A stretch of DNA of 64,000 nt from Nocardioides mesophilus (GTDB lineage: Bacteria > Actinomycetota > Actinomycetes > Propionibacteriales > Nocardioidaceae): NCBI RefSeq assembly GCF_014395785.1, contig NZ_CP060713.1:2198501-2262500 (forward strand), given 5' to 3'. Below the pieces are notes generated by a model. The model was not told the DNA's origin. It saw only the letters and a list, made by a program, of their open reading frames with translations, and did not search any database. Position 1 is the stretch's first letter, and the number at the start of each line of letters is the position of its first letter. Shown in pieces: positions 127 to 32,691 of this stretch. Both the position numbers and the translations under genes were made by a program.

Positions 127-1264
127 TCACTGTTCGCTCCATAGGGCCGCCTCCATTCGGTCGGTCGCCACCCGATTCAGCTCGGGGTCGACGTGGGTGT
201 AGGTGTTCAAGGTGACGCCGATCTGCGAGTGACCGAGAATCTCCATCACGACGCGGGCGGGTACGCCCTGGGCGAGCAGCAGGCTGGCCGCGTGTGCCGG
301 AGGTCGTGGACGCGGATCCGGCGCAGCCCCGCTCTCTTTGTCAGACTCTGGAACGATCGGTAATCGTTGCGAGGGTGGACGGGAGTGCCCAAGCTGGTGG
401 TGAACACGAGGTCACTCTCTTGCCACAAGTCGCCAGCTGCCTCGCGCTCCTGGTGCTGGACGTTGCGACGGCGGACCAGAGAAGCGGCCAATGACGGTGG
501 CATGGGGATCACGCGGTTGGAACGGTCCGTCTTTGTTCGGACCAGCGCGAGAGTCCCATCCGGTTGGCGCTGCAGGGCGCGTTCGACGAAGAGGAGTGAG
601 TTCTCGAGATCCACGTGCTGCCATCCGAGGCCGAGGACCTCGCCTTGTCGCAGTCCTAGGGAGAGGGCGATCAACCAACGAGCCTCAAGCCGGTCGCGGC
701 TGGCCGCCTCCAGGAAGCTCCGCGCCTCCGCGACGGTGTAGGGCTTGACCGTCGCTCGGGTCAACGGTGGCGGATCGACCAGCAGGGCCGGATTGGTCGT
801 GATCAAACCCCACCGCACGGCCACGGTGAGGGCGCGTCGAAGGACGGCATGGATACGACGGACGCTCGCGGGCGCGAGGGTCTTCCCCATCTCGCGGTAG
901 AACGCCGTTACGTGCTGGGGTCGTCCAGGCGGTACTTGCCGAGCCAGGGGTTGATGTGGAGCTTCGCGAACTGCTCGTAGCTGTGCAACGTGGACGGACG
1001 GACTCGATCAGCGGCCACCTCGCGGAGGTACGTTGCCATCCACTCCTGCACCGTCGGCGAACGGTCGGGGCTGAGTTGTCCAGCCTCAGCAGCGGCGAGC
1101 AGCCGGCGTACCTCGCGCCCCACCTCAGCCTTGGTTCGACGGGTCACCTGTTTGCGCCGGCGGGTGCCTCCATGCCAGCCGAGGTCGACCGCGCCTCGCC
1201 ATCGCCCGTCTGACAACTGATAGATAGAGCCTTCTCCCTTGGCGCGTCGCTGCCGATCAGCCAT
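127..1264 (-). pseudogene. int: Tyrosine-type site-specific integrase, frameshifted
   Basis: Read from 1264 to 127 this is a full-length phage/ICE tyrosine recombinase of about 379 residues in three reading frames. The N-terminal segment (1264-908) has an AP2-like arm-binding region (GEGSIYQLSDGRWRG) and a SAM-like core-binding domain ending in a stop at 908. The frame resumes at about 905 (QHVTAFYREMGK), and a second single-base shift falls near 305, just after HDLRHT. Active-site boxes are all present across the frames: Arg in LGLRQGEVLGL, HDLRH, LGHSQ, and the nucleophile Tyr in NTYTHV. The ATG overlaps the stop of the upstream gene. It lies directly beside the tRNA repeat, as expected for the enzyme that integrated the element. 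It is inactive as read, unless the shifts are sequencing errors. Confidence 0.9.
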
Positions 1265-1574
1265 GTGACCATCCCGGCTCGTCCGGAAGCAGAGGATCCG
1301 GCACTGTTATCCAACTGAGGTCGTCCAGGTGCTGCTGGCAGACGGGGATCCGATCGCCGTCGGTGTCGGGGGCAATGGAGATGGCGTCGAGCCAGCAGCC
1401 GGGACGACAGCACCGCGGAAGCTCAATCAGCTGGACCATCCGGATGCGCCCCTCACTGGCGATGAGGGCTTCTCGCCAGTGGTCTACGCAACTCCTCCGA
1501 TGCAAGCCCTTCGCGTCGCGGATAGTGACGCGCTGAATCATCGTGCAGTCGGGGCGTTCACAGACCTGAATCAT
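1257..1574 (-). CDS. Small Cys-rich protein between xis and int
   Basis: This 105-residue protein starts at the ATG at 1574, in a 4-base ATGA overlap with the excisionase stop. Its own stop overlaps the integrase ATG. It has a CERPDC pair near the N terminus, an isolated Cys-His in RSCVDHW, and CCRPGCW plus CQQH towards the C terminus, so a zinc-binding fold is plausible. No known family was recognised. The tight overlaps on both sides put it in one translationally coupled unit with the recombination genes, so a role in integration or excision control is possible but unproven. Confidence 0.65.
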   Translation of the reverse strand: MIQVCERPDCTMIQRVTIRDAKGLHRRSCVDHWREALIASEGRIRMVQLIELPRCCRPGCWLDAISIAPDTDGDRIPVCQQHLDDLSWITVPDPLLPDEPGWSHG

Positions 1575-1756
1575 GACGCCACTAGATTCGCTCTGAGGCT
1601 CTCGACGTAGGCCGTCACGGCGGCCCGGGGGACCCGGCGGCAAGCGCCGATCTGGACCGATTCGAGCGCGCCGGCGCGCATCAGCTCGTAGACCTTCGAG
1701 CGCCCGACGTTCAGGCACTCGGCCACTTCCTCTGGCTTCAACAACATCGACTCCAC
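1571..1756 (-). CDS. xis: Excisionase-family HTH protein
   Basis: This 61-residue protein has the helix-turn-helix signature of the MerR-like excise/BldC family (KPEEVAECLNVGRSKVYELM, followed by RVPRAAVTAYVESL). Such proteins bend DNA at attachment sites and bias tyrosine integrases towards excision. It is the first gene of the xis / Cys-rich / int cluster on the minus strand. Its stop overlaps the next start by four bases. The reading frame is intact, unlike the integrase. Confidence 0.85.
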   Translation of the reverse strand: MESMLLKPEEVAECLNVGRSKVYELMRAGALESVQIGACRRVPRAAVTAYVESLRANLVAS

Positions 1757-2033
1757 TGTTTCCTCCGTTGCGAGTGCGGCTTAGCTGTCCGTGGGCGTTT
1801 TCGCTTGTCCACCCAACATCGGACCAGGCCGTGCGCTCGCTCGGCAGAGGGCTGGGGTTGCCGAGGGTTGCCGCAACGGTCGGAAGTTGTTCGCTGCACT
1901 GGCGGCGGAGTGACGCACCTATCACGCCAGGGTGCCGGCCAGCACCCGCTGAATGAGCGACGTCGCGGGTCTGGCGCAAGTGCGTGCGACGTGAACGGAG
2001 CGCCCACCAAAGACGCTTCGGAAAGTCAGGGAC

Positions 2034-2303
2034 TCAGCGGCCGAACTTCCCAGTGGTGCCCTTGGAGTACCAGCGGTCCAGCATCCGCAGCGCGTGACGG
2101 CCATAGCCAATCTCGGCCATGCACTGTTTCACGCGCTCTAGGCCGATTGACTCGTCGAGCGCGACTATGAACTTCGGCATGATCGCTTCGGTCTGGGAGT
2201 TGCGGGCCCAACCGTTGTTGCCGATGTAGTCGAGGAAATCGAGGTCTCCCAGCTGATCCTCGGTGAAGTCGAGCCACTGGAAGTTGGCAGGCTTGCGAGC
2301 CAC
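2034..2303 (-). CDS. Hypothetical protein, 89 aa
   Basis: An intact small ORF starting MARKPANFQWLDF. It is acidic and rich in aromatic residues and has no recognised domain. It begins three bases after the stop of the frameshifted gene at 2307-2563, so the two probably form one minus-strand transcript. Codon use is GC-rich like its neighbours. It is kept because of the tandem arrangement and normal amino-acid composition. Confidence 0.5.
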   Translation of the reverse strand: MARKPANFQWLDFTEDQLGDLDFLDYIGNNGWARNSQTEAIMPKFIVALDESIGLERVKQCMAEIGYGRHALRMLDRWYSKGTTGKFGR

Positions 2304-2306
2304 GGC

Positions 2307-2563
2307 CTACATGCCCTCGCGGTATCCCGGGAAGGTGTGCGTCGGCGTGCCTGTAACGGGGTTGATCCACGGATCCTTGCCATTCGCCTCGCGCAGGGTC
2401 TTCTCGACATACGCGCGGTCGTTGGTGTCCTTTGTACGAGCACCTTGAGCTCTGTCGGGCCGACGATGGCCTGACGACTGCACTTGAAGCCTGTTTCGGT
2501 CAATGCCCTCTCGGCGCTTGGGCTGCCGTGACCTACGCCGATGTGAAGCCATTCCATGTCCAT
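2307..2563 (-). pseudogene. Hypothetical protein, single frameshift
   Basis: A roughly 86-residue protein reads MDMEWLHIGVGHGS... to TELKVL in one frame (start ATG at 2563). It continues in another frame as RTKDTNDRAYVEKTLREANG and ends at 2307. One base is missing near 2440. No family was recognised. It lies directly upstream of the 89-residue gene, and the pair may be a small functional module. Whether the shift is real or a sequencing error cannot be told from the sequence. Confidence 0.5.
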
Positions 2564-2744
2564 GCGGCGCACCCTACTGGTAGGGACCGACACCTGGCCG
2601 AGTCCTGTCCAGGCCCCGTCGGAGCCAAGGAGCCCGCTGTCCTACTCCCAGCCTTTGCAGGGCCGAGCGTGCTGACGTGCCAGAGGACTGACCGACACCC
2701 CACCATCGAAATAAGCGGATGTTCCGAGGTGCACCGACAGGCGG

Positions 2745-2782
2745 CGGAATGCAGCGGCCGCGAGCCGGCAGGCTACTCGCGG
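2745..2782 (+). repeat. 38-bp direct repeat flanking an IS110 element (left copy)
   Basis: Bases 2745-2782 and 4361-4398 are identical except for one C/T difference. They sit immediately outside the two ends of the IS110-family element at 2783-4360. The repeat begins CGGAATGCAGCGG and ends GGCTACTCGCGG (GGTTACTCGCGG on the right). IS110 elements normally make no long target duplication, so this may be a duplicated or paired target. Confidence 0.8.
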
Positions 2783-4360
2783 CTACTTGAGACTTCTCCT
2801 ACGGCTGCGGCCCGGCCAGGCTGTTGTCGAGGTGCTCGGCGGGACGCTCTCTATCGCGGCTGCCCAGCCTTTGGTTGTGGCTCTTTTTCGGAATGCGTTT
2901 CCGTCGGGCACCGATGGTGAGGTCGTGGCCCAAGAGGGGATTGCCCGGCTCAAAGTAGCTCTGCCCGCCCTCGCCGACAGGTGACGCTCGAGGGCAAGGA
3001 GGCAGCAGCATGAGTGACGTGATCGTGGGGGTGGATCCCCACAAGAAGTCGGTGACCATCGAGGCCATCGACGGCCAGGGCAAGAAGTTGGCCACCGGGA
3101 GGTTCGGCACCGGGACCCGGGACTACAAGGCGATGCTCGGGTACGTGCGCCGGCAGTGGCCGCACCACCGGTGGGCCATCGAGGGCGCCCACGGCGTGGG
3201 CCGCCCGCTGGCACAACGGCTGCTCGCCGACGGCGAGAGCGTGGTCGACGTCCCCGCCAAGCTCGCCGCGCGGGTGCGGGTGTTCGACACCGGCAACGCG
3301 CGCAAGACCGACACCACCGATGCGCACGCGATCGCGGCCGTAGCACTGCGCACCCCGGACCTGCAGGTACTCAGCTTCGACGAGGAACTGGTCGCGCTGC
3401 GGTTGCTGGCCGACCGTCGTGATGAGTTGTCGGCGCGCCGGGTGCAGACCGTGAACAGGCTGCACAGACTGCTCACCGAGCTGATCCCCGGGGGCGCCGG
3501 CAAAGACCTCACCGCGACCAAGGCGAAGCGGCTGCTGGCCACGGTGAAGCCCAGATCCGTGCTGGGCAAGACGACCAGGCGGATGGCCGCCGACGAGATC
3601 GTCGACCTGGTAGCCACCGACGCCAGGCTGAAGTCCCTGACCAAGGAGCTCAAGACCGCGGTCCAGGCACGGGGTTCGCACCTGATGGACCTGCCCGGGA
3701 TCGGCCCCGCCGGCGCCGCCCGCATCCTGGCAGATGTCGGTGACGTCGCCCGGTTCCCCGACCGCAACCACTTCGCCTCCTGGACCGGCACCGCGCCGCT
3801 GGACGCCACCTCCGGTGAGCAGATCCGGCACCGGCTTTCCCGGGCCGGGAACCGACGGCTGAACCATGTCCTGCACATGGCCGCCATCGCCCAAATCCGG
3901 CTCGACACCGAAGGACGGACCTACTACCGACGCAAGCTGGGCGAGGCCAAGACCCGCAAGGAGGCCCGACGCTGCCTGAAGCGACGCCTGTCCGACATGG
4001 TCTACCGCCAGCTCGTCGCCGACGCCCAGCTCACCGAGCACGCCGCCGCGGACACCGATGAGCACGACACTGAGACGGGTCCGGGAGGGCACTCGGGGGC
4101 GTCACTCACATCCAGCGCGGCCGACCTGCACACCCCGGTCATCGGCTCTTCGGATCAGCCACAACCCGGACCCGCAGTGCCGACGCTACCCGTGCCATCG
4201 CCTCGTGCGAAGACCCGCGCGGGCTCGGCTACCCAGCCCCAGCGTCGACGCGCAGGAGCCGTCAAGATGGAGCGCCCCACCGGACGAACGATCTTGACGG
4301 CGACAAGCGCCGACGCACACTCACAGGCGCCGAGACCCCGCTCTTGACACAGAGGGGAAC
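2783..4360 (+). mobile_element. IS110-family insertion sequence (copy 1)
   Basis: Boundaries come from comparison with the two near-identical copies at 22,785 and 31,267. All share a left end with CTACTTG and GGCCCGGCCAGGCT, and a right end with TTGACACAGAGGGGA. The left non-coding end (2783-3009, about 227 bp) precedes the transposase, and the right end is short. That is the IS110-group layout, in which the bridge RNA is encoded upstream of the recombinase. The element is flanked by 38-bp direct repeats. Exact ends are uncertain by a few bases. Confidence 0.75.
3010..4347 (+). CDS. IS110-family DEDD transposase
   Basis: This 445-residue protein starts at ATG 3010, seven bases after GGAGG. 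The N-terminal RuvC-like DEDD domain shows IVGVDPHKKS (Asp), WAIEGAHGVG (Glu) and KTDTTDAHAIA (paired Asp). The C-terminal transposase_20 domain shows LMDLPGIGPAGAARIL followed by HRLSRAGNRRLNHVLH, where the catalytic Ser is expected. About 100 residues after the usual end form a Pro/Ser-rich tail of doubtful meaning, longer than in the other IS110 copies here. It catalyses RNA-guided recombination in known family members. It is related to, but clearly different from, the transposases at 23,014 and 31,496. Confidence 0.92.
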   Translation: MSDVIVGVDPHKKSVTIEAIDGQGKKLATGRFGTGTRDYKAMLGYVRRQWPHHRWAIEGAHGVGRPLAQRLLADGESVVDVPAKLAARVRVFDTGNARKTDTTDAHAIAAVALRTPDLQVLSFDEELVALRLLADRRDELSARRVQTVNRLHRLLTELIPGGAGKDLTATKAKRLLATVKPRSVLGKTTRRMAADEIVDLVATDARLKSLTKELKTAVQARGSHLMDLPGIGPAGAARILADVGDVARFPDRNHFASWTGTAPLDATSGEQIRHRLSRAGNRRLNHVLHMAAIAQIRLDTEGRTYYRRKLGEAKTRKEARRCLKRRLSDMVYRQLVADAQLTEHAAADTDEHDTETGPGGHSGASLTSSAADLHTPVIGSSDQPQPGPAVPTLPVPSPRAKTRAGSATQPQRRRAGAVKMERPTGRTILTATSADAHSQAPRPRS

Positions 4361-4398
4361 CGGAATGCAGCGGCCGCGAGCCGGCAGGTTACTCGCGG
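4361..4398 (+). repeat. 38-bp direct repeat flanking IS110 copy 1 (right copy)
   Basis: Right partner of the repeat at 2745-2782, one mismatch (T for C). It abuts the IS110 right end TTGACACAGAGGGGAACC. The following 292 bases (4399-4690) hold no gene that can be supported. Confidence 0.8.
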
Positions 4399-4690
4399 CG
4401 GGATGACTCACCCCCGGATGCCGCTTGAGCGGTTTGCCTCAGCGCGGCACGAGCGGACGGTGCCGATAGGTCTGGGCCGCATATTTATGCTGGTTCCGGG
4501 TACACGACTGAACAGCGGCGCTCATGCACTTGAGGCATGGCTGGACGCGGCGCCCATTCCTCGCGACCAGGAGAACGGGCCTCTAGCCCGTCGCTCAAGG
4601 GCTCGTGACAAGGCGGGCTGCGCGACCACTACCCGGTCCGACCCACGGACTGCATCCGCACCACTCAGCCCCCTATGAAGGAGGGACTCG

Positions 4691-5101
4691 ATGTTCGACA
4701 AGAAGACAAACATCGCAGCGCAGGAGGCCTTCGGTGAGGCCATCAACACCGGCCACGTGGACGCTTTCGACGACCTAGTCGACCCGAACAGCGTCGACCA
4801 CGACCCGGCACCGGGCCAACAGCCCGGACCGGAGGGCTACAAGAAGTTCTTCACCGAGATGCGGACCGCGTTTCCCGATCTCCACGTCGATGTCGAAACC
4901 CTGGTCGCCGACGATGACCAGGTCGCCTTCGCCTACACCCTCACCGGCACCCACCAGGGCCCGTTCCAAGGACATGAGGCCACCGGCAAGTCCGTCCAGG
5001 TCCGCGGCATGCAGATCAGCAGGTTCGCCGAGGGCAAGCTGACAGAGCGCTGGGGTAGCACCGACGAGGTCGGCATCCTCACCCAGCTCGGGCTCAACTA
5101 G
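4691..5101 (+). CDS. SnoaL-like / ester cyclase family protein
   Basis: This 136-residue single-domain protein belongs to the SnoaL-like polyketide cyclase (NTF2-like) fold. Typical features are the N-terminal helix with NTGHVDAFDDLVDPNSVDHD, the middle GYKKFFTEMRTAFPDLHVDVE, and the core GTHQGPFQGHEATGKSVQVR followed by ISRFAEGKLTERWGSTD. The start ATG follows GAAGGAGG by a few bases. Its stop is immediately followed by the GTG of the alpha/beta hydrolase, so the two are co-transcribed. Family members range from aldol cyclases to proteins of unknown function, and the substrate cannot be read here. Confidence 0.85.
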   Translation: MFDKKTNIAAQEAFGEAINTGHVDAFDDLVDPNSVDHDPAPGQQPGPEGYKKFFTEMRTAFPDLHVDVETLVADDDQVAFAYTLTGTHQGPFQGHEATGKSVQVRGMQISRFAEGKLTERWGSTDEVGILTQLGLN

Positions 5102-5883
5102 GTGACGTTGAACCACGTCCGACGAGGAAGCGGCAGCCCGCTGTTGCTCGTGCATGGACTGGGCGCCGGGTGGCAGTCCTGGTCCCCGATACTCGGGGAA
5201 CTCGCCGAGCGCCGCGAGGTGATCGCCGTCGACTTACCGGGGTTCGGCGACACGCCGCCGCTGATCGGCGAGGTCACGATTGCCACCCTGACCGACTCCG
5301 TCGCGAACTTCATTCGCGACGAAGGCCTGGACGGGGTCTCGACCGTCGGCCAGTCGATGGGCGGTCGAATAGTGCTTGAGCTCGCACGGCGGGGAGTCGG
5401 CGGCGACACGGTGGCGTTGGACCCGGGCGGCTTCTGGAGCGACCGTGAGCTCGCCGTCTTCGGCGCCACGCTCCGGCCGTCGCTCGCCCTGGTCCGAGCG
5501 CTTCGAGGAATGCTGCCCTCGCTGCTCAGCAACCCGGTGGGACGGACTCTGCTGCTGGCGCAGTTGTCCGCGCGCCCATGGGCACTCTCGCGCGAGACCG
5601 TGCTTCCGGACGTCCGCGGGCTGGCCGATTCCCCATCGAGTGGCGCTGCCCTGGACGCGCTGACCAAGGGGCCAAGCAACAGGGAGCCCCGGCTGGCACA
5701 GTCCCCGGCCATGTGACGATCGGCTGGGGTCGCCGTGACCTGGTCACCGTGCCGCGACAGGCCGCACGTGCCACGGAGCTGTACCCCGACGCGGTCCTGC
5801 ACTGGTTCGAGCGGTGCGGTCACTTCCCACAGTGGGACGCACCGCACGAAGCGACCCAACTGATCCTCAACAGCACCGATTGA
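5102..5883 (+). pseudogene. Alpha/beta hydrolase, one frameshift
   Basis: An alpha/beta hydrolase of about 260 residues begins with GTG directly after the SnoaL-like gene. It has the oxyanion motif LLVHGLGAGWQSW, the nucleophile elbow GQSMGG, and in the second frame the acid in WGRRDLVT and the catalytic His in ERCGHFPQWDAP. The frame breaks in a GGGG run near 5668: the first frame reads TKG-PSNREP to a stop at 5716, the second AKQQGAPAG to 5883. Restoring one G gives a complete enzyme. The substrate is unknown. Confidence 0.8.
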
Positions 5884-5943
5884 GGTTTGTTGCCCGCCCG
5901 TTCGCGTACATCACTATCGCCAAGCCGGCACAACTGAGACTTG

Positions 5944-5982
5944 CGCTCATCGGCAGCTCCAAGCGTCCGACAGGCGGCGGAA
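5944..5982 (+). repeat. Dispersed intergenic repeat (CGCTCATCGGCA type, with CCGACAGGCGGCGGAA)
   Basis: CGCTCATCGGCA occurs exactly at 5944, 19,285, 31,241 and 34,141, always on the plus strand and outside confident genes. Here it is followed 11 bases later by CCGACAGGCGGCGGAA, a 16-mer that also occurs at 2734-2749 and, with one change, at 7470-7485. The unit ends about 180 bp before the CHAT gene. Its nature is unknown. Confidence 0.6.
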
Positions 5983-6159
5983 AGACTCACCTCGGACAGC
6001 GCGCGACGCACGGCCATGTCCGGATGGTCGCGGACCTGCGGAACGTATCCGTCGGCAGGTGCGCTTCTTCCGCGCCCGCGAGGTTCCAACAGGCGCCCGG
6101 TCCCGGGTGTCGGTGTTGCCACGCATACTAAGAAGCCTTCGACCAGTGGGGAGGATCTC

Positions 6160-7260: not shown

Positions 7261-7604
7261 CGGTACTTGTACAGCCAACTTCGGTTCGATGACCTTGCCC
7301 ATTGCGAATCCTGACCGCGCGGCGCAACCTCGTGATGCCGATCAAGTTCTCACCGATGAGGCCTGCCCCGCACCGAACGTCGTAGACCCGGGGCATGGGG
7401 TGACGACAGCCGCGGCGCGCGACTGCACGGACGCGCGCTCACAAGCAGTTGAGTGCGTTTCGAGGGACACCGGCAGGCGGCGGAACGACGCAGGCACGCA
7501 CAGCGCCGTCCCGGGTCGCTGAGTCGAACTAAGGTCGTCGCCGTCGCGCCCCTCGTGACCTCGAGGCGTCGTACGAGGGGGTCGGTCGAATATCATCGTT
7601 CAGT
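7261..7604. other. Intergenic, no gene supported
   Basis: No ORF with a convincing start or composition is seen in these 344 bases. They hold one CCGGCAGGCGGCGGAA repeat (7470-7485). Confidence 0.6.
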
Positions 7605-22683: not shown

Positions 22684-22784
22684 CTGGGAGTCCCCCCTTC
22701 AACGGCAGTGAGGCCGTCACATGATTGTGACGCTCCGGACCCACCTTCGGTTTCGTTCGCCGCCACCTGTAGTTGCGCTGCTAT

Positions 22785-23013
22785 CGGCTACTTGTTTCAT
22801 TGCCTCAGGACCGTGGCCCGGCCAGGCTTCGGTCCAGACGTCCGGGCTGTCGCTCGCAAATCGGCTGCCCACGCACGTCGTGTGGCTCTCACATGGCCTG
22901 CGCAGTCCCGGGCGTCACCCCAGGGCGGGGAGAGGCTCAAGAGGGGTTTGCTCTGCTCGAAGTAGCGTTGCCCTCCCGGCTCGAACTCTCTGTTGGATCC
23001 ATCGGAGGACTCG
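22785..23013 (+). ncRNA. Candidate bridge-RNA region of IS110 copy A
   Basis: This 229-bp left end has no coding role and is preserved in copy B. It shares blocks (CTACTTG, GGCCCGGCCAGGCT, GGCTGCCCA, a CTC-AAGAGGGG block) with the left end of the divergent copy at 2783-3009. In IS110-group elements such as IS621 this region encodes the bridge RNA that specifies target and donor. The RNA itself cannot be folded reliably by eye. Confidence 0.4.
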
Positions 23014-24192
23014 TTGAGCTCCACACCTGAGCGCGTGGTCATCGGTATGGACCCGCACAAGCGTTCCGCCACCATCGAGGTGATGACCGGCGACGAGACC
23101 ATCGTCGGTGGTGGCCGGTTCGGCACCGACCGCGACGGCTACGCGGCAATGAAGAACTACGCCAAGCAGTGGCCGGACCGGGTCTGGGCGATCGAGGGCT
23201 GCCAGGGCATCGGCCGGCACATCGCCAACCGACTCCTCGCCGATGGTGAGGAGGTCGTCGACGTCCCCCCGAAACTGTCCGCGCGGGCTCGGGTGTTCGC
23301 CACCGGGCAGGGTCGTAAGACCGACGCCACCGACGCCCACTCCGTCGCCCTGGTCGGCACCCGGATGAGCGGGCTGCGTCCGGTGGTCAACGACGAGCAG
23401 CTCGCGCTGCTGCGGATCCTGGTCGACCGCCGCCGGTCCCTGGGTGAGGACCACACCCGGATGATCAGCCAGCTGCACCAGCTGCTGCTGGAGCTGATCC
23501 CGGGCGGCGCGAAGAAGTACCTGTCGGCCGCCCAGGCCAAGGTCCTGCTGGCCAAGGTCCGTCCCCGCGACGTCGCCGGTAAGGCACGACGGCGGGTCGC
23601 CGCGGAGCTGATCGCCGACCTCGAGCGCGTCTACCGACGCTCGAAAGAGGCCGACAAGGAGCTGAAGGAACTCGTCGCCGCGACCGGCACGACCCTGATG
23701 GACCTGCACGGCATCGGCCCGTCCGGAGCCGCCCGGCTGCTGGTCGAGGTCGCCGACATCACCCGCTTCCCCACCAAGGCGCACTTCGCGTCCTGGAACG
23801 GCACCGCACCCATCGACGCCTCCTCCGGCGACCAGGTCCGGCACCGGCTGTCGCGGGCAGGCAACCGGCAGATCAACCGAGTGCTGCACATCATGGCCAC
23901 CGTCCAGCTGCGCACCCCCACTGAAGGTCGCGCCTACTTCGACCGCAAGAAGGCCTCGGGCAAGACCTCGATGGAAGCGATGCGCTGCCTGAAACGACGT
24001 CTGTCCGACCTCGTGTACCGGCGGATGGTCGACGACGCCATCGCCCGAGCAGCGACGGGCCCGGGAGGGCAACGGGGACACGACTCTGACTCCAGCGCGA
24101 CCGGCTCACATCCCCACACCGGCTCTTCGGACAAGCCACTTCCCGGACCCGCCACCAGCCAGCCTAAGACACCACTTCGCAAGGCCGGTTGA
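23014..24192 (+). CDS. IS110-family DEDD transposase (copy A)
   Basis: TTG 23014 is favoured because GGAGG lies five bases upstream; an earlier in-frame TTG at 22,993 is possible. About 392 residues. DEDD motifs: VVIGMDPHKRSATIE, VWAIEGCQGIGRH, RKTDATDAHSVAL. C-terminal domain: LMDLHGIGPSGAARLL, HRLSRAGNRQINRVLHI, with a conserved Ser-rich tail. It differs from copy B by one Lys to Arg change (RKTDAT against RRTDAT), one residue before the conserved TDATDAH Asp motif. It catalyses recombination of its own IS. Confidence 0.93.
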   Translation: MSSTPERVVIGMDPHKRSATIEVMTGDETIVGGGRFGTDRDGYAAMKNYAKQWPDRVWAIEGCQGIGRHIANRLLADGEEVVDVPPKLSARARVFATGQGRKTDATDAHSVALVGTRMSGLRPVVNDEQLALLRILVDRRRSLGEDHTRMISQLHQLLLELIPGGAKKYLSAAQAKVLLAKVRPRDVAGKARRRVAAELIADLERVYRRSKEADKELKELVAATGTTLMDLHGIGPSGAARLLVEVADITRFPTKAHFASWNGTAPIDASSGDQVRHRLSRAGNRQINRVLHIMATVQLRTPTEGRAYFDRKKASGKTSMEAMRCLKRRLSDLVYRRMVDDAIARAATGPGGQRGHDSDSSATGSHPHTGSSDKPLPGPATSQPKTPLRKAG

Positions 24193-24284
24193 CACAGAGG
24201 GGAGCCATGACAGAGTTTCACTCTCCGCGGCAGATGAGGGCGTTCGTTAACGCGGGTTCCTTAGGCAACGACGCGCGTCTCCGG

Positions 24285-31252: not shown

Positions 31253-31266
31253 TTCCGCGCGGAAAG

Positions 31267-32691
31267 CGGCTACTTGTTTCATTGCCTCAGGACCGTGGCC
31301 CGGCCAGGCTTCGGTCCAGACGTCCGGGCTGTCGCTCGCAAATCGGCTGCCCACGCACGTCGTGTGGCTCTCACATGGCCTGCGCAGTCCCGGGCGTCAC
31401 CCCAGGGCGGGGAGAGGCTCAAGAGGGGTTTGCTCTGCTCGAAGTAGCGTTGCCCTCCCGGCTCGAACTCTCTGTTGGATCCATCGGAGGACTCGTTGAG
31501 CTCCACACCTGAGCGCGTGGTCATCGGTATGGACCCGCACAAGCGTTCCGCCACCATCGAGGTGATGACCGGCGACGAGACCATCGTCGGTGGTGGCCGG
31601 TTCGGCACCGACCGCGACGGCTACGCGGCAATGAAGAACTACGCCAAGCAGTGGCCGGACCGGGTCTGGGCGATCGAGGGCTGCCAGGGCATCGGCCGGC
31701 ACATCGCCAACCGACTCCTCGCCGATGGTGAGGAGGTCGTCGACGTCCCCCCGAAACTGTCCGCGCGGGCTCGGGTGTTCGCCACCGGGCAGGGTCGTAG
31801 GACCGACGCCACCGACGCCCACTCCGTCGCCCTGGTCGGCACCCGGATGAGCGGGCTGCGTCCGGTGGTCAACGACGAGCAGCTCGCGCTGCTGCGGATC
31901 CTGGTCGACCGCCGCCGGTCCCTGGGTGAGGACCACACCCGGATGATCAGCCAGCTGCACCAGCTGCTGCTGGAGCTGATCCCGGGCGGCGCGAAGAAGT
32001 ACCTGTCGGCCGCCCAGGCCAAGGTCCTGCTGGCCAAGGTCCGTCCCCGCGACGTCGCCGGTAAGGCACGACGGCGGGTCGCCGCGGAGCTGATCGCCGA
32101 CCTCGAGCGCGTCTACCGACGCTCGAAAGAGGCCGACAAGGAGCTGAAGGAACTCGTCGCCGCGACCGGCACGACCCTGATGGACCTGCACGGCATCGGC
32201 CCGTCCGGAGCCGCCCGGCTGCTGGTCGAGGTCGCCGACATCACCCGCTTCCCCACCAAGGCGCACTTCGCGTCCTGGAACGGCACCGCACCCATCGACG
32301 CCTCCTCCGGCGACCAGGTCCGGCACCGGCTGTCGCGGGCAGGCAACCGGCAGATCAACCGAGTGCTGCACATCATGGCCACCGTCCAGCTGCGCACCCC
32401 CACTGAAGGTCGCGCCTACTTCGACCGCAAGAAGGCCTCGGGCAAGACCTCGATGGAAGCGATGCGCTGCCTGAAACGACGTCTGTCCGACCTCGTGTAC
32501 CGGCGGATGGTCGACGACGCCATCGCCCGAGCAGCGACGGGCCCGGGAGGGCAACGGGGACACGACTCTGACTCCAGCGCGACCGGCTCACATCCCCACA
32601 CCGGCTCTTCGGACAAGCCACTTCCCGGACCCGCCACCAGCCAGCCTAAGACACCACTTCGCAAGGCCGGTTGACACAGAGGGGAGCCATG
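31267..32691 (+). mobile_element. IS110-family insertion sequence, copy B
   Basis: 1,425 bp, identical by eye to copy A at 22,785-24,209 apart from the G at 31,800. Same orientation. The left non-coding end (31,267-31,495) again may encode the bridge RNA. Recent duplication is implied. Confidence 0.85.
31496..32674 (+). CDS. IS110-family DEDD transposase (copy B)
   Basis: TTG start at 31,496 with GGAGG five bases upstream; about 392 residues. Identical to the copy A protein except Arg for Lys just before TDATDAHSVAL. All DEDD and C-terminal motifs are intact (VVIGMDPHKRS, WAIEGCQGIG, SRAGNRQINRVLH). Confidence 0.93.
   Translation: MSSTPERVVIGMDPHKRSATIEVMTGDETIVGGGRFGTDRDGYAAMKNYAKQWPDRVWAIEGCQGIGRHIANRLLADGEEVVDVPPKLSARARVFATGQGRRTDATDAHSVALVGTRMSGLRPVVNDEQLALLRILVDRRRSLGEDHTRMISQLHQLLLELIPGGAKKYLSAAQAKVLLAKVRPRDVAGKARRRVAAELIADLERVYRRSKEADKELKELVAATGTTLMDLHGIGPSGAARLLVEVADITRFPTKAHFASWNGTAPIDASSGDQVRHRLSRAGNRQINRVLHIMATVQLRTPTEGRAYFDRKKASGKTSMEAMRCLKRRLSDLVYRRMVDDAIARAATGPGGQRGHDSDSSATGSHPHTGSSDKPLPGPATSQPKTPLRKAG

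What the first reader, a model, noticed from the sequence alone, without database searches (positions are those of the whole stretch)
2745..4398. IS110 element bracketed by 38-bp direct repeats
Repeats at 2745-2782 and 4361-4398 (37 of 38 identical) abut both ends of the element. IS110 insertion does not usually duplicate long targets, so this may be a paired target, a tandem repeat entered by the IS, or a product of recombination. The repeat contains palindromic GC-rich parts.
Basis: seen in the sequence. Interest (0 to 1): 0.55.

Follow-up and report, generated by a model that had tools for sequence, protein, structure and literature searches.

The report
Jumping gene inside a tandem repeat
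An RNA-guided bacterial jumping gene of the IS110 family sits at the joint between two side-by-side copies of a 38-base repeat, so the long repeats around it were most likely there before it landed and are not a product of its insertion; this is a neat but ordinary example of how these elements choose sites.

Summary
In detail: 2745-2782 and 4361-4398 are a 37/38 direct repeat, with no other copy in the genome. The IS is 2784-4360: an IS110 recombinase gene plus an upstream bridge-RNA region. Across relatives the RNA's donor guides track each element's own ends and its target guides track each copy's own flanks (0 of 5000 permutations as good). Both repeats therefore lie outside the IS, and the guides read across their joint (TCGCGG-C-GGAA). 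Of 40 copies with both ends only this one has a long flanking repeat, so the family does not make such duplications. Best reading: the IS entered the joint of a pre-existing two-unit tandem array, with one C shared by both ends. Outside the array, 2733-2744 plus 4399-4412 rebuild an interspersed motif known from other genomes (29.1 bits; intact copies here 30.9 and 26.7), so the whole repeat-IS-repeat block splits that motif at the same core. No empty site was found, and the guide fit is good but not unique (rank 24 of 42,073). Ordinary IS110 biology around an array of unknown origin.

The parts
2745..2782 (+). left 38-bp unit, ends in the left-target sequence TCGCGG
   Evidence: fits the left target guide
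2783..2783 (+). core C at left junction (shared with 4361)
   Evidence: single-C spacing of GCGGC-AGATCCGG sites; comparison of ends
2784..4360 (+). IS110-family element (1577 bp), TACTTG...AGAGGGGAAC
   Evidence: end conservation in relatives
2784..3009 (+). bridge-RNA (seekRNA) region upstream of the recombinase gene
   Evidence: consensus structure of 21 relatives, 18 of 47 predicted pairs with changes on both sides; own fold z -1.76
2851..2860 (+). left target guide region (CTATCGCGGC); its last seven bases TCGCGGC equal left flank 2777-2783, the first three do not match
2884..2891 (+). right target guide (TTTTTCGG); reverse complement CCGAAAAA pairs with CCGGAA at 4360-4365 with one G-U
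   Evidence: relative L045 has right flank CCGAAATG
2933..2940 (+). left donor guide AGAGGGGA, equals right end 4351-4358
2953..2959 (+). right donor guide AAGTAGC, complement of left end GCTACTT 2782-2788
3010..4347 (+). IS110 recombinase gene (445 aa; PF01548 and PF02371)
4361..4398 (+). right 38-bp unit, begins with core C and right target GGAATG
2733..2744 (+). left half (ACCGACAGGCGG) of an interspersed motif split by the repeat-IS-repeat block
   Evidence: top left-half match in the window; motif in other genomes
4399..4412 (+). right half (CGGGATGACTCACC) of the same interspersed motif
   Evidence: rank 4 of 127,948 positions

Best explanation
An IS110-group element (2784-4360) inserted by bridge-RNA-guided recombination at the joint between two adjacent 38-bp units, ...CTCGCGG-C-GGAATG... 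The left target guide reads TCGCGGC at the end of unit 1 and the right target guide reads C-GGAA at the start of unit 2. Only the single core C is present at both ends; the long direct repeats are pre-existing tandem units now separated by the IS. The two-unit array itself lies inside, and splits at the same GCGG-C core, a member of an interspersed 26-bp motif whose right half resembles the right flanks of other IS110 copies. Shown: ends, guide-flank agreement, copy numbers, absence of long repeats at the other copies, motif halves. Inferred: that the RNA is made and guides insertion here, the order of events, that the array had two units before insertion, and how the units got into the motif.
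For: IS ends defined from relatives: LE ..CGGC|TACTTG and RE AGAGGGGAAC|. Donor guides track own ends: RD positions 4-7 mean 3.91 vs 3.15 permuted (43 copies), LD 7.0 vs 6.52 of 7 (41 copies; only two of the seven positions were free in my search expression), each 0 of 5000 permutations as good. Target guides fit own flanks better than others' flanks: RT positions 3-6 mean 3.56 vs 2.53, LT last 5 mean 3.23 vs 2.44, each 0 of 5000 (39 distinct copies). The relative L045 (97% in its best segment) has right flank CCGAAATG, an exact fit to the window's right guide over six bases (L045's own guide region is not held). Long flanking direct repeat in 1 of 40 copies. GCGGC-AGATCCGG sites in 6 genomes: 29 with no extra base, 4 with one, 13 with two, though the latter two classes comprise 20 possible sequences. 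A related case: L058 in G068 lies next to units of a 34-bp tandem array, and L112 of that genome shows such units joined with no IS in the stretch held. The joint ranks 24th of 42,073 C-centred sites in the IS-free window by guide score.
Against: No empty site with the 38-bp units was found. The guide fit is not unique: 23 window sites score higher. Right-target fit stops at position 6: positions 7-8 show no excess (0.23 own, 0.30 permuted). 10 of 39 copies fail the 4/4 fit, seven with 3/4, L013 and L078 with 1/4, L034 with 0/4. The permutation tests do not control for relatedness. Right flanks of one clade are conserved beyond the guide (GACGC), unexplained by it. The left edge of the array alone already scores 19.6 bits for the interspersed motif, so the claim of a split rests on the right half.
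Confidence: 0.78

Rival explanations
1. The pre-insertion site had a single 38-bp unit; a circle carrying the IS plus one unit (from another array) integrated by homologous recombination through the unit, giving unit-IS-unit.
For: The two units differ by one base, as expected if they came from two molecules; the outer motif halves show only that something entered the core.
Against: Needs a donor locus with the same unit; none in the 293 other family genomes searched. The fit of both target guides at the joint would be a by-product.
Confidence: 0.1
2. The IS insertion itself duplicated 38 bp of target (a long target-site duplication).
For: Repeats abut both ends.
Against: The 39 other copies with both ends show no such repeat (best direct match otherwise 11, in L058, where the matching word is the target motif itself); a passage read says duplication is not characteristic of the family (PMC11187229).
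Confidence: 0.04
3. The repeat is part of the IS (long terminal direct repeats carried by the element).
For: Found only with this IS in the genome.
Against: Three 79% copies (L012, L018, L021) lack it; their alignment to the window stops within 7 bp of the IS ends. L045, whose right end only is held, lacks it too.
Confidence: 0.02
4. Two independent short palindromic repeats that came to flank the IS, brought next to it by later deletion.
For: The window holds other mobile DNA (integrase-like ORF, two further IS110 copies).
Against: Both copies abut the IS to the base, in the register the guides predict.
Confidence: 0.03

Closest known systems
IS621 and other IS110-group elements with bridge RNA (PMC11208160, passages; PMC11208158, listing only)
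   Same: Non-coding region with target and donor loops; left target guide pairs with the bottom strand, right target guide with the top strand; IS621 inserts into repeated palindromic (REP) DNA
   Different: IS621 has a CT core dinucleotide; here the sequence shared by donor and target appears to be one C. The target here is the joint of a low-copy 38-bp tandem pair, not a high-copy REP
ISPa11, ISPpu9, ISPpu10, ISRm19 in REP sequences (PMC1525189, passages)
   Same: IS110-family elements with all listed copies inserted in short palindromic repeats
   Different: ISPa11 at least is placed in the IS1111 group by PMC11187229; in the passages seen none is described as bracketed by two whole repeat copies
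seekRNA-guided IS1111/IS110 (PMC11187229, passages)
   Same: Non-coding RNA encoded upstream of tnp in the IS110 type, with guide pieces for each target strand
   Different: Different targets; the word 'tandem' does not occur in the main text

Membership tests
IS110 family, IS110 group | DEDD N-terminal and Transposase_20 C-terminal domains | tested here: met
   PF01548 E 1.5e-24 and PF02371 E 7.2e-25; catalytic residues not checked
IS110 family, IS110 group | longer non-coding region upstream of the gene | tested here: met
   226 bp upstream (2784-3009), 13 bp downstream (4348-4360)
IS110 family, IS110 group | bridge RNA with guides matching own target and donor | tested here: met
   sequence level only; expression not testable
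IS110 family, IS110 group | no long target duplication | tested here: met
   39 other copies with both ends
IS110 family, IS110 group | circular intermediate and RNA-guided recombination activity | not testable with these tools
   needs experiment
IS1111 group | non-coding region downstream of the gene | tested here: not met
   region is upstream; PMC11187229 notes rare exceptions
IS1111 group | 11-13 bp subterminal inverted repeats | tested here: inconclusive
   none of the 9 inverted pairs of 12 nt or more in 2400-4800 joins the two IS ends; 11-nt pairs were below the limit
REP element (for the 38-bp unit) | many interspersed copies | tested here: not met
   2 copies in own genome, 0 of 293 others
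REP element (for the 38-bp unit) | palindromic | tested here: inconclusive
   8-bp inverted arms, but fold no better than shuffles

The most novel reading that the evidence does not exclude
The short palindromic units are themselves moved or multiplied by IS110 bridge-RNA recombinases acting on target-like GCGG-C cores: unit ends coincide with the core, and the block of two units plus IS splits an otherwise intact interspersed target motif exactly there. Arrays of IS110 target sites would then be products of the recombinase (target-by-target exchange), not mere landing pads.
Probability: 0.1. Interest if true: 0.68.

Novelty: new member of a known kind. Interest (0 to 1): 0.33.

Why it matters
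It shows that long direct repeats beside an IS110 element can be read as a pre-existing target, not as a duplication, and it gives a sequence-level test: the guides of the element's own RNA name the joint. It also points to short arrays of target units in these (apparently actinobacterial) genomes whose origin is open. The flanking 38-bp repeats could let the host delete the IS and one unit by recombination (inference).

Tried and rejected
Looked for the 38-bp unit elsewhere: own genome (2 places only), 294 family genomes including own, viral contigs with an exact 28-mer (0). Looked for the empty site with the right flank and left flank: in G279, G239 and G223 the downstream genes are conserved, but homology begins at window 4444 or later and, in the flank held, nothing longer than a 16-mer matches window 1001-2783; so no empty site. 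The left-flank hits in other genomes were pieces of the interspersed motif. Plasmid and phage records gave only partial matches under 80% identity to the element (20 plasmid records and 1 phage record; the rows shown were transposases where annotated). Rfam: no bridge-RNA family hit; best was a sub-threshold antisense match. At first I took CGGAATG at the right end for IS sequence and the left repeat for an extra copy; dropped when the right guide proved to pair with it. Tested whether target sites in general lie in arrays of GCGG-C units: GCGGC 20 seen against 13.0 expected near 36 copies, p 0.04 uncorrected, with its shifted neighbour CGCGG as high (19 against 11.6), and 8-mers of the target itself up to 4.6-fold near 51 sites: weak, not claimed.

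Rows left out: one search left out L030 and L049 and every locus in which my expressions did not find both ends; its 40 rows still hold L057 and L059, whose flanks are identical; 43 rows became 40 with a right flank and 39 distinct; window, L018, L021, L049, L059 and the two own-genome motif copies (L137, L141) left out; matrix from the 14 motif copies outside the own genome, of 16; also L030 left out. Papers: passages only of PMC11208160, PMC1525189, PMC11187229; PMC11208158 from the search listing only; a search for IS110 with tandem repeat and insertion site gave 7 papers, listing only.

Full report
Observation. The repeat is real and at the stated coordinates: 2745-2782 and 4361-4398, 37 of 38 identical, extending one base further to 38 of 39. 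It has no further copy in the 4.49-Mb genome with up to 3 mismatches; its last 32 bases occur in none of the other 293 family genomes searched, and a 28-mer of it has no exact match in viral contigs. No repeat of comparable length and identity was reported in 2400-4800.

The element. The gene 3010-4347 codes for a 445-aa IS110 recombinase with both family domains. Relatives were found in the same genome (70%, L002), the same genus (79%, three copies in G002), many genomes of the family (213 of 294 with any match to the element, own included) and named contigs, largely actinobacterial (22 loci). Comparing ends across copies fixes the left end at ..CGGC|TACTTG and the right end at AGAGGGGAAC|, so the IS is taken as 2784-4360 (one base of slack because of the shared C) and both 38-bp repeats lie outside it.

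Bridge RNA. The region upstream of the gene aligns across 21 relatives; the consensus structure has 47 pairs, 18 with changes on both sides, in the two-loop layout described for bridge RNAs (PMC11208160, passages). The window's own sequence folds better than most shuffles (z -1.76, 10 of 200 as good). In the second loop the left donor guide equals the element's own right end over 7 of 7 positions in 41 of 41 copies, but five of those positions were fixed by my search expression; permuted pairs give 6.52. The right donor guide complements the left end: mean 3.91 of 4 variable positions in 43 copies, 3.15 permuted; 0 of 5000 permutations as good for either. In the first loop the right target guide complements the first bases right of the element, and the left guide resembles the last bases left of it; both beat all 5000 permutations. 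29 of 39 distinct copies fit 4 of 4 right-target positions (3-6) allowing G-U, 24 strictly; 10 do not, three of them badly (L013, L034, L078). Positions 7-8 show no excess. Relatedness was not controlled.

Reading the window with these guides. The right guide specifies CCGAAAAA; the right flank is CCGGAATG (one G-U within the first six). L045 has CCGAAATG there. The left guide specifies CTATCGCGGC; the left flank is TACTCGCGGC, a run of seven, the three outer bases not matching. So the guides read the end of unit 1 and the start of unit 2, which puts the IS at their joint. In the IS-free window this joint ranks 24th of 42,073 C-centred sites under the single-C model and 11th of 12,001 under a CC model: good, not unique. 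The own genome holds three places within one mismatch of TCGCGGCGGAATGC, none occupied by this IS as the match is unbroken.

Single or double C. GCGGC-AGATCCGG, the target of a sister clade, occurs 29 times in six genomes without an extra base, against 4 times with one and 13 times with two extra bases, although those comprise 4 and 16 possible sequences; the one-base class holds no GCGGCCAGATCCGG. Inserted copies carry a C at both junctions. This is inferred from a sister clade, not from an empty site of this copy.

Is the repeat made by insertion? Of 40 copies with both ends, only the window has a long flanking direct repeat within about 80 bp (score 36; the others 5 to 11; flanks of different copies paired at random at most 20). 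The 11 is L058, where the IS lies beside a tandem array of 34-bp units; L112 in the same genome shows such units joined with no IS in the stretch held, and two of the three G002 copies (L012, L018) lie beside 34-35-bp units. So landing at a unit edge is seen more than once, and making a long duplication is not.

The outer frame. Left of unit 1 is ACCGACAGGCGG and right of unit 2 is CGGGATGACTCACC. These are the halves of an interspersed motif found at 16 places in 13 of 120 genomes, two of them in the own genome (reversed control 1 place). A matrix from the 14 copies outside this genome scores the joined site 29.1 bits, next to 30.9 and 26.7 for the two intact copies in this window (5966, 7469) and 15.5 for the next best position. 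Unjoined, the left edge scores 19.6, the right edge 3.4 and the unit joint -0.9; the right half at 4399 ranks 4 of 127,948 positions on its own. I wrote the search pattern after seeing the window's halves, but the matrix does not use them. The whole block 2745-4398 thus splits this motif at the same GCGG-C core. How the units came to lie there is not known. A general excess of such cores near insertion sites is weak (20 against 13.0, p 0.04 uncorrected).

Verdict. An ordinary IS110-group element in a guide-matched target that happens to be the joint of a small tandem array. The open and more interesting point is the array.

Noticed in passing
window 22784-24206 and 31266-32688: Two further IS110-group copies in direct orientation, 2 mismatches in 1423 bp, about 7 kb apart with different flanks.
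   Followed up: partly
window 5966-5991 and 7469-7494: Intact copies of the interspersed motif ACCGRCAGGCGGCGGRAWGACKCACC (up to 3 mismatches), found at 16 places in 13 of 120 family genomes; origin unknown.
   Followed up: partly
L111 and L112 (G068): Tandem arrays of 34-bp units with GCGG-C joints, one beside an IS110 copy and one with no IS in the stretch held.
   Followed up: partly
window 4067-4164, minus strand: Sub-threshold Rfam match (42.5 bits, cut-off 45) to Mycobacterium sRNA ncrMT1302, antisense to the 3' part of the recombinase gene.
   Followed up: no
window 246-1264, minus strand: Two neighbouring ORFs that look like pieces of a phage-type integrase; PF00589 hit in 246-890, the other ORF was not scanned.
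   Followed up: no
window 4444-5893: SnoaL-like gene and following DNA conserved in G279 and G239, with no match to window 1001-2783 beside it in the flank held, so the site may lie at the edge of a conserved block.
   Followed up: partly
right flanks of L002, L014, L019, L065, L072, L073, L077, L080 (and L023 with GACTC): Right flank conserved as CGGNNNGACGC beyond the guide length, not explained by the guides.
   Followed up: no
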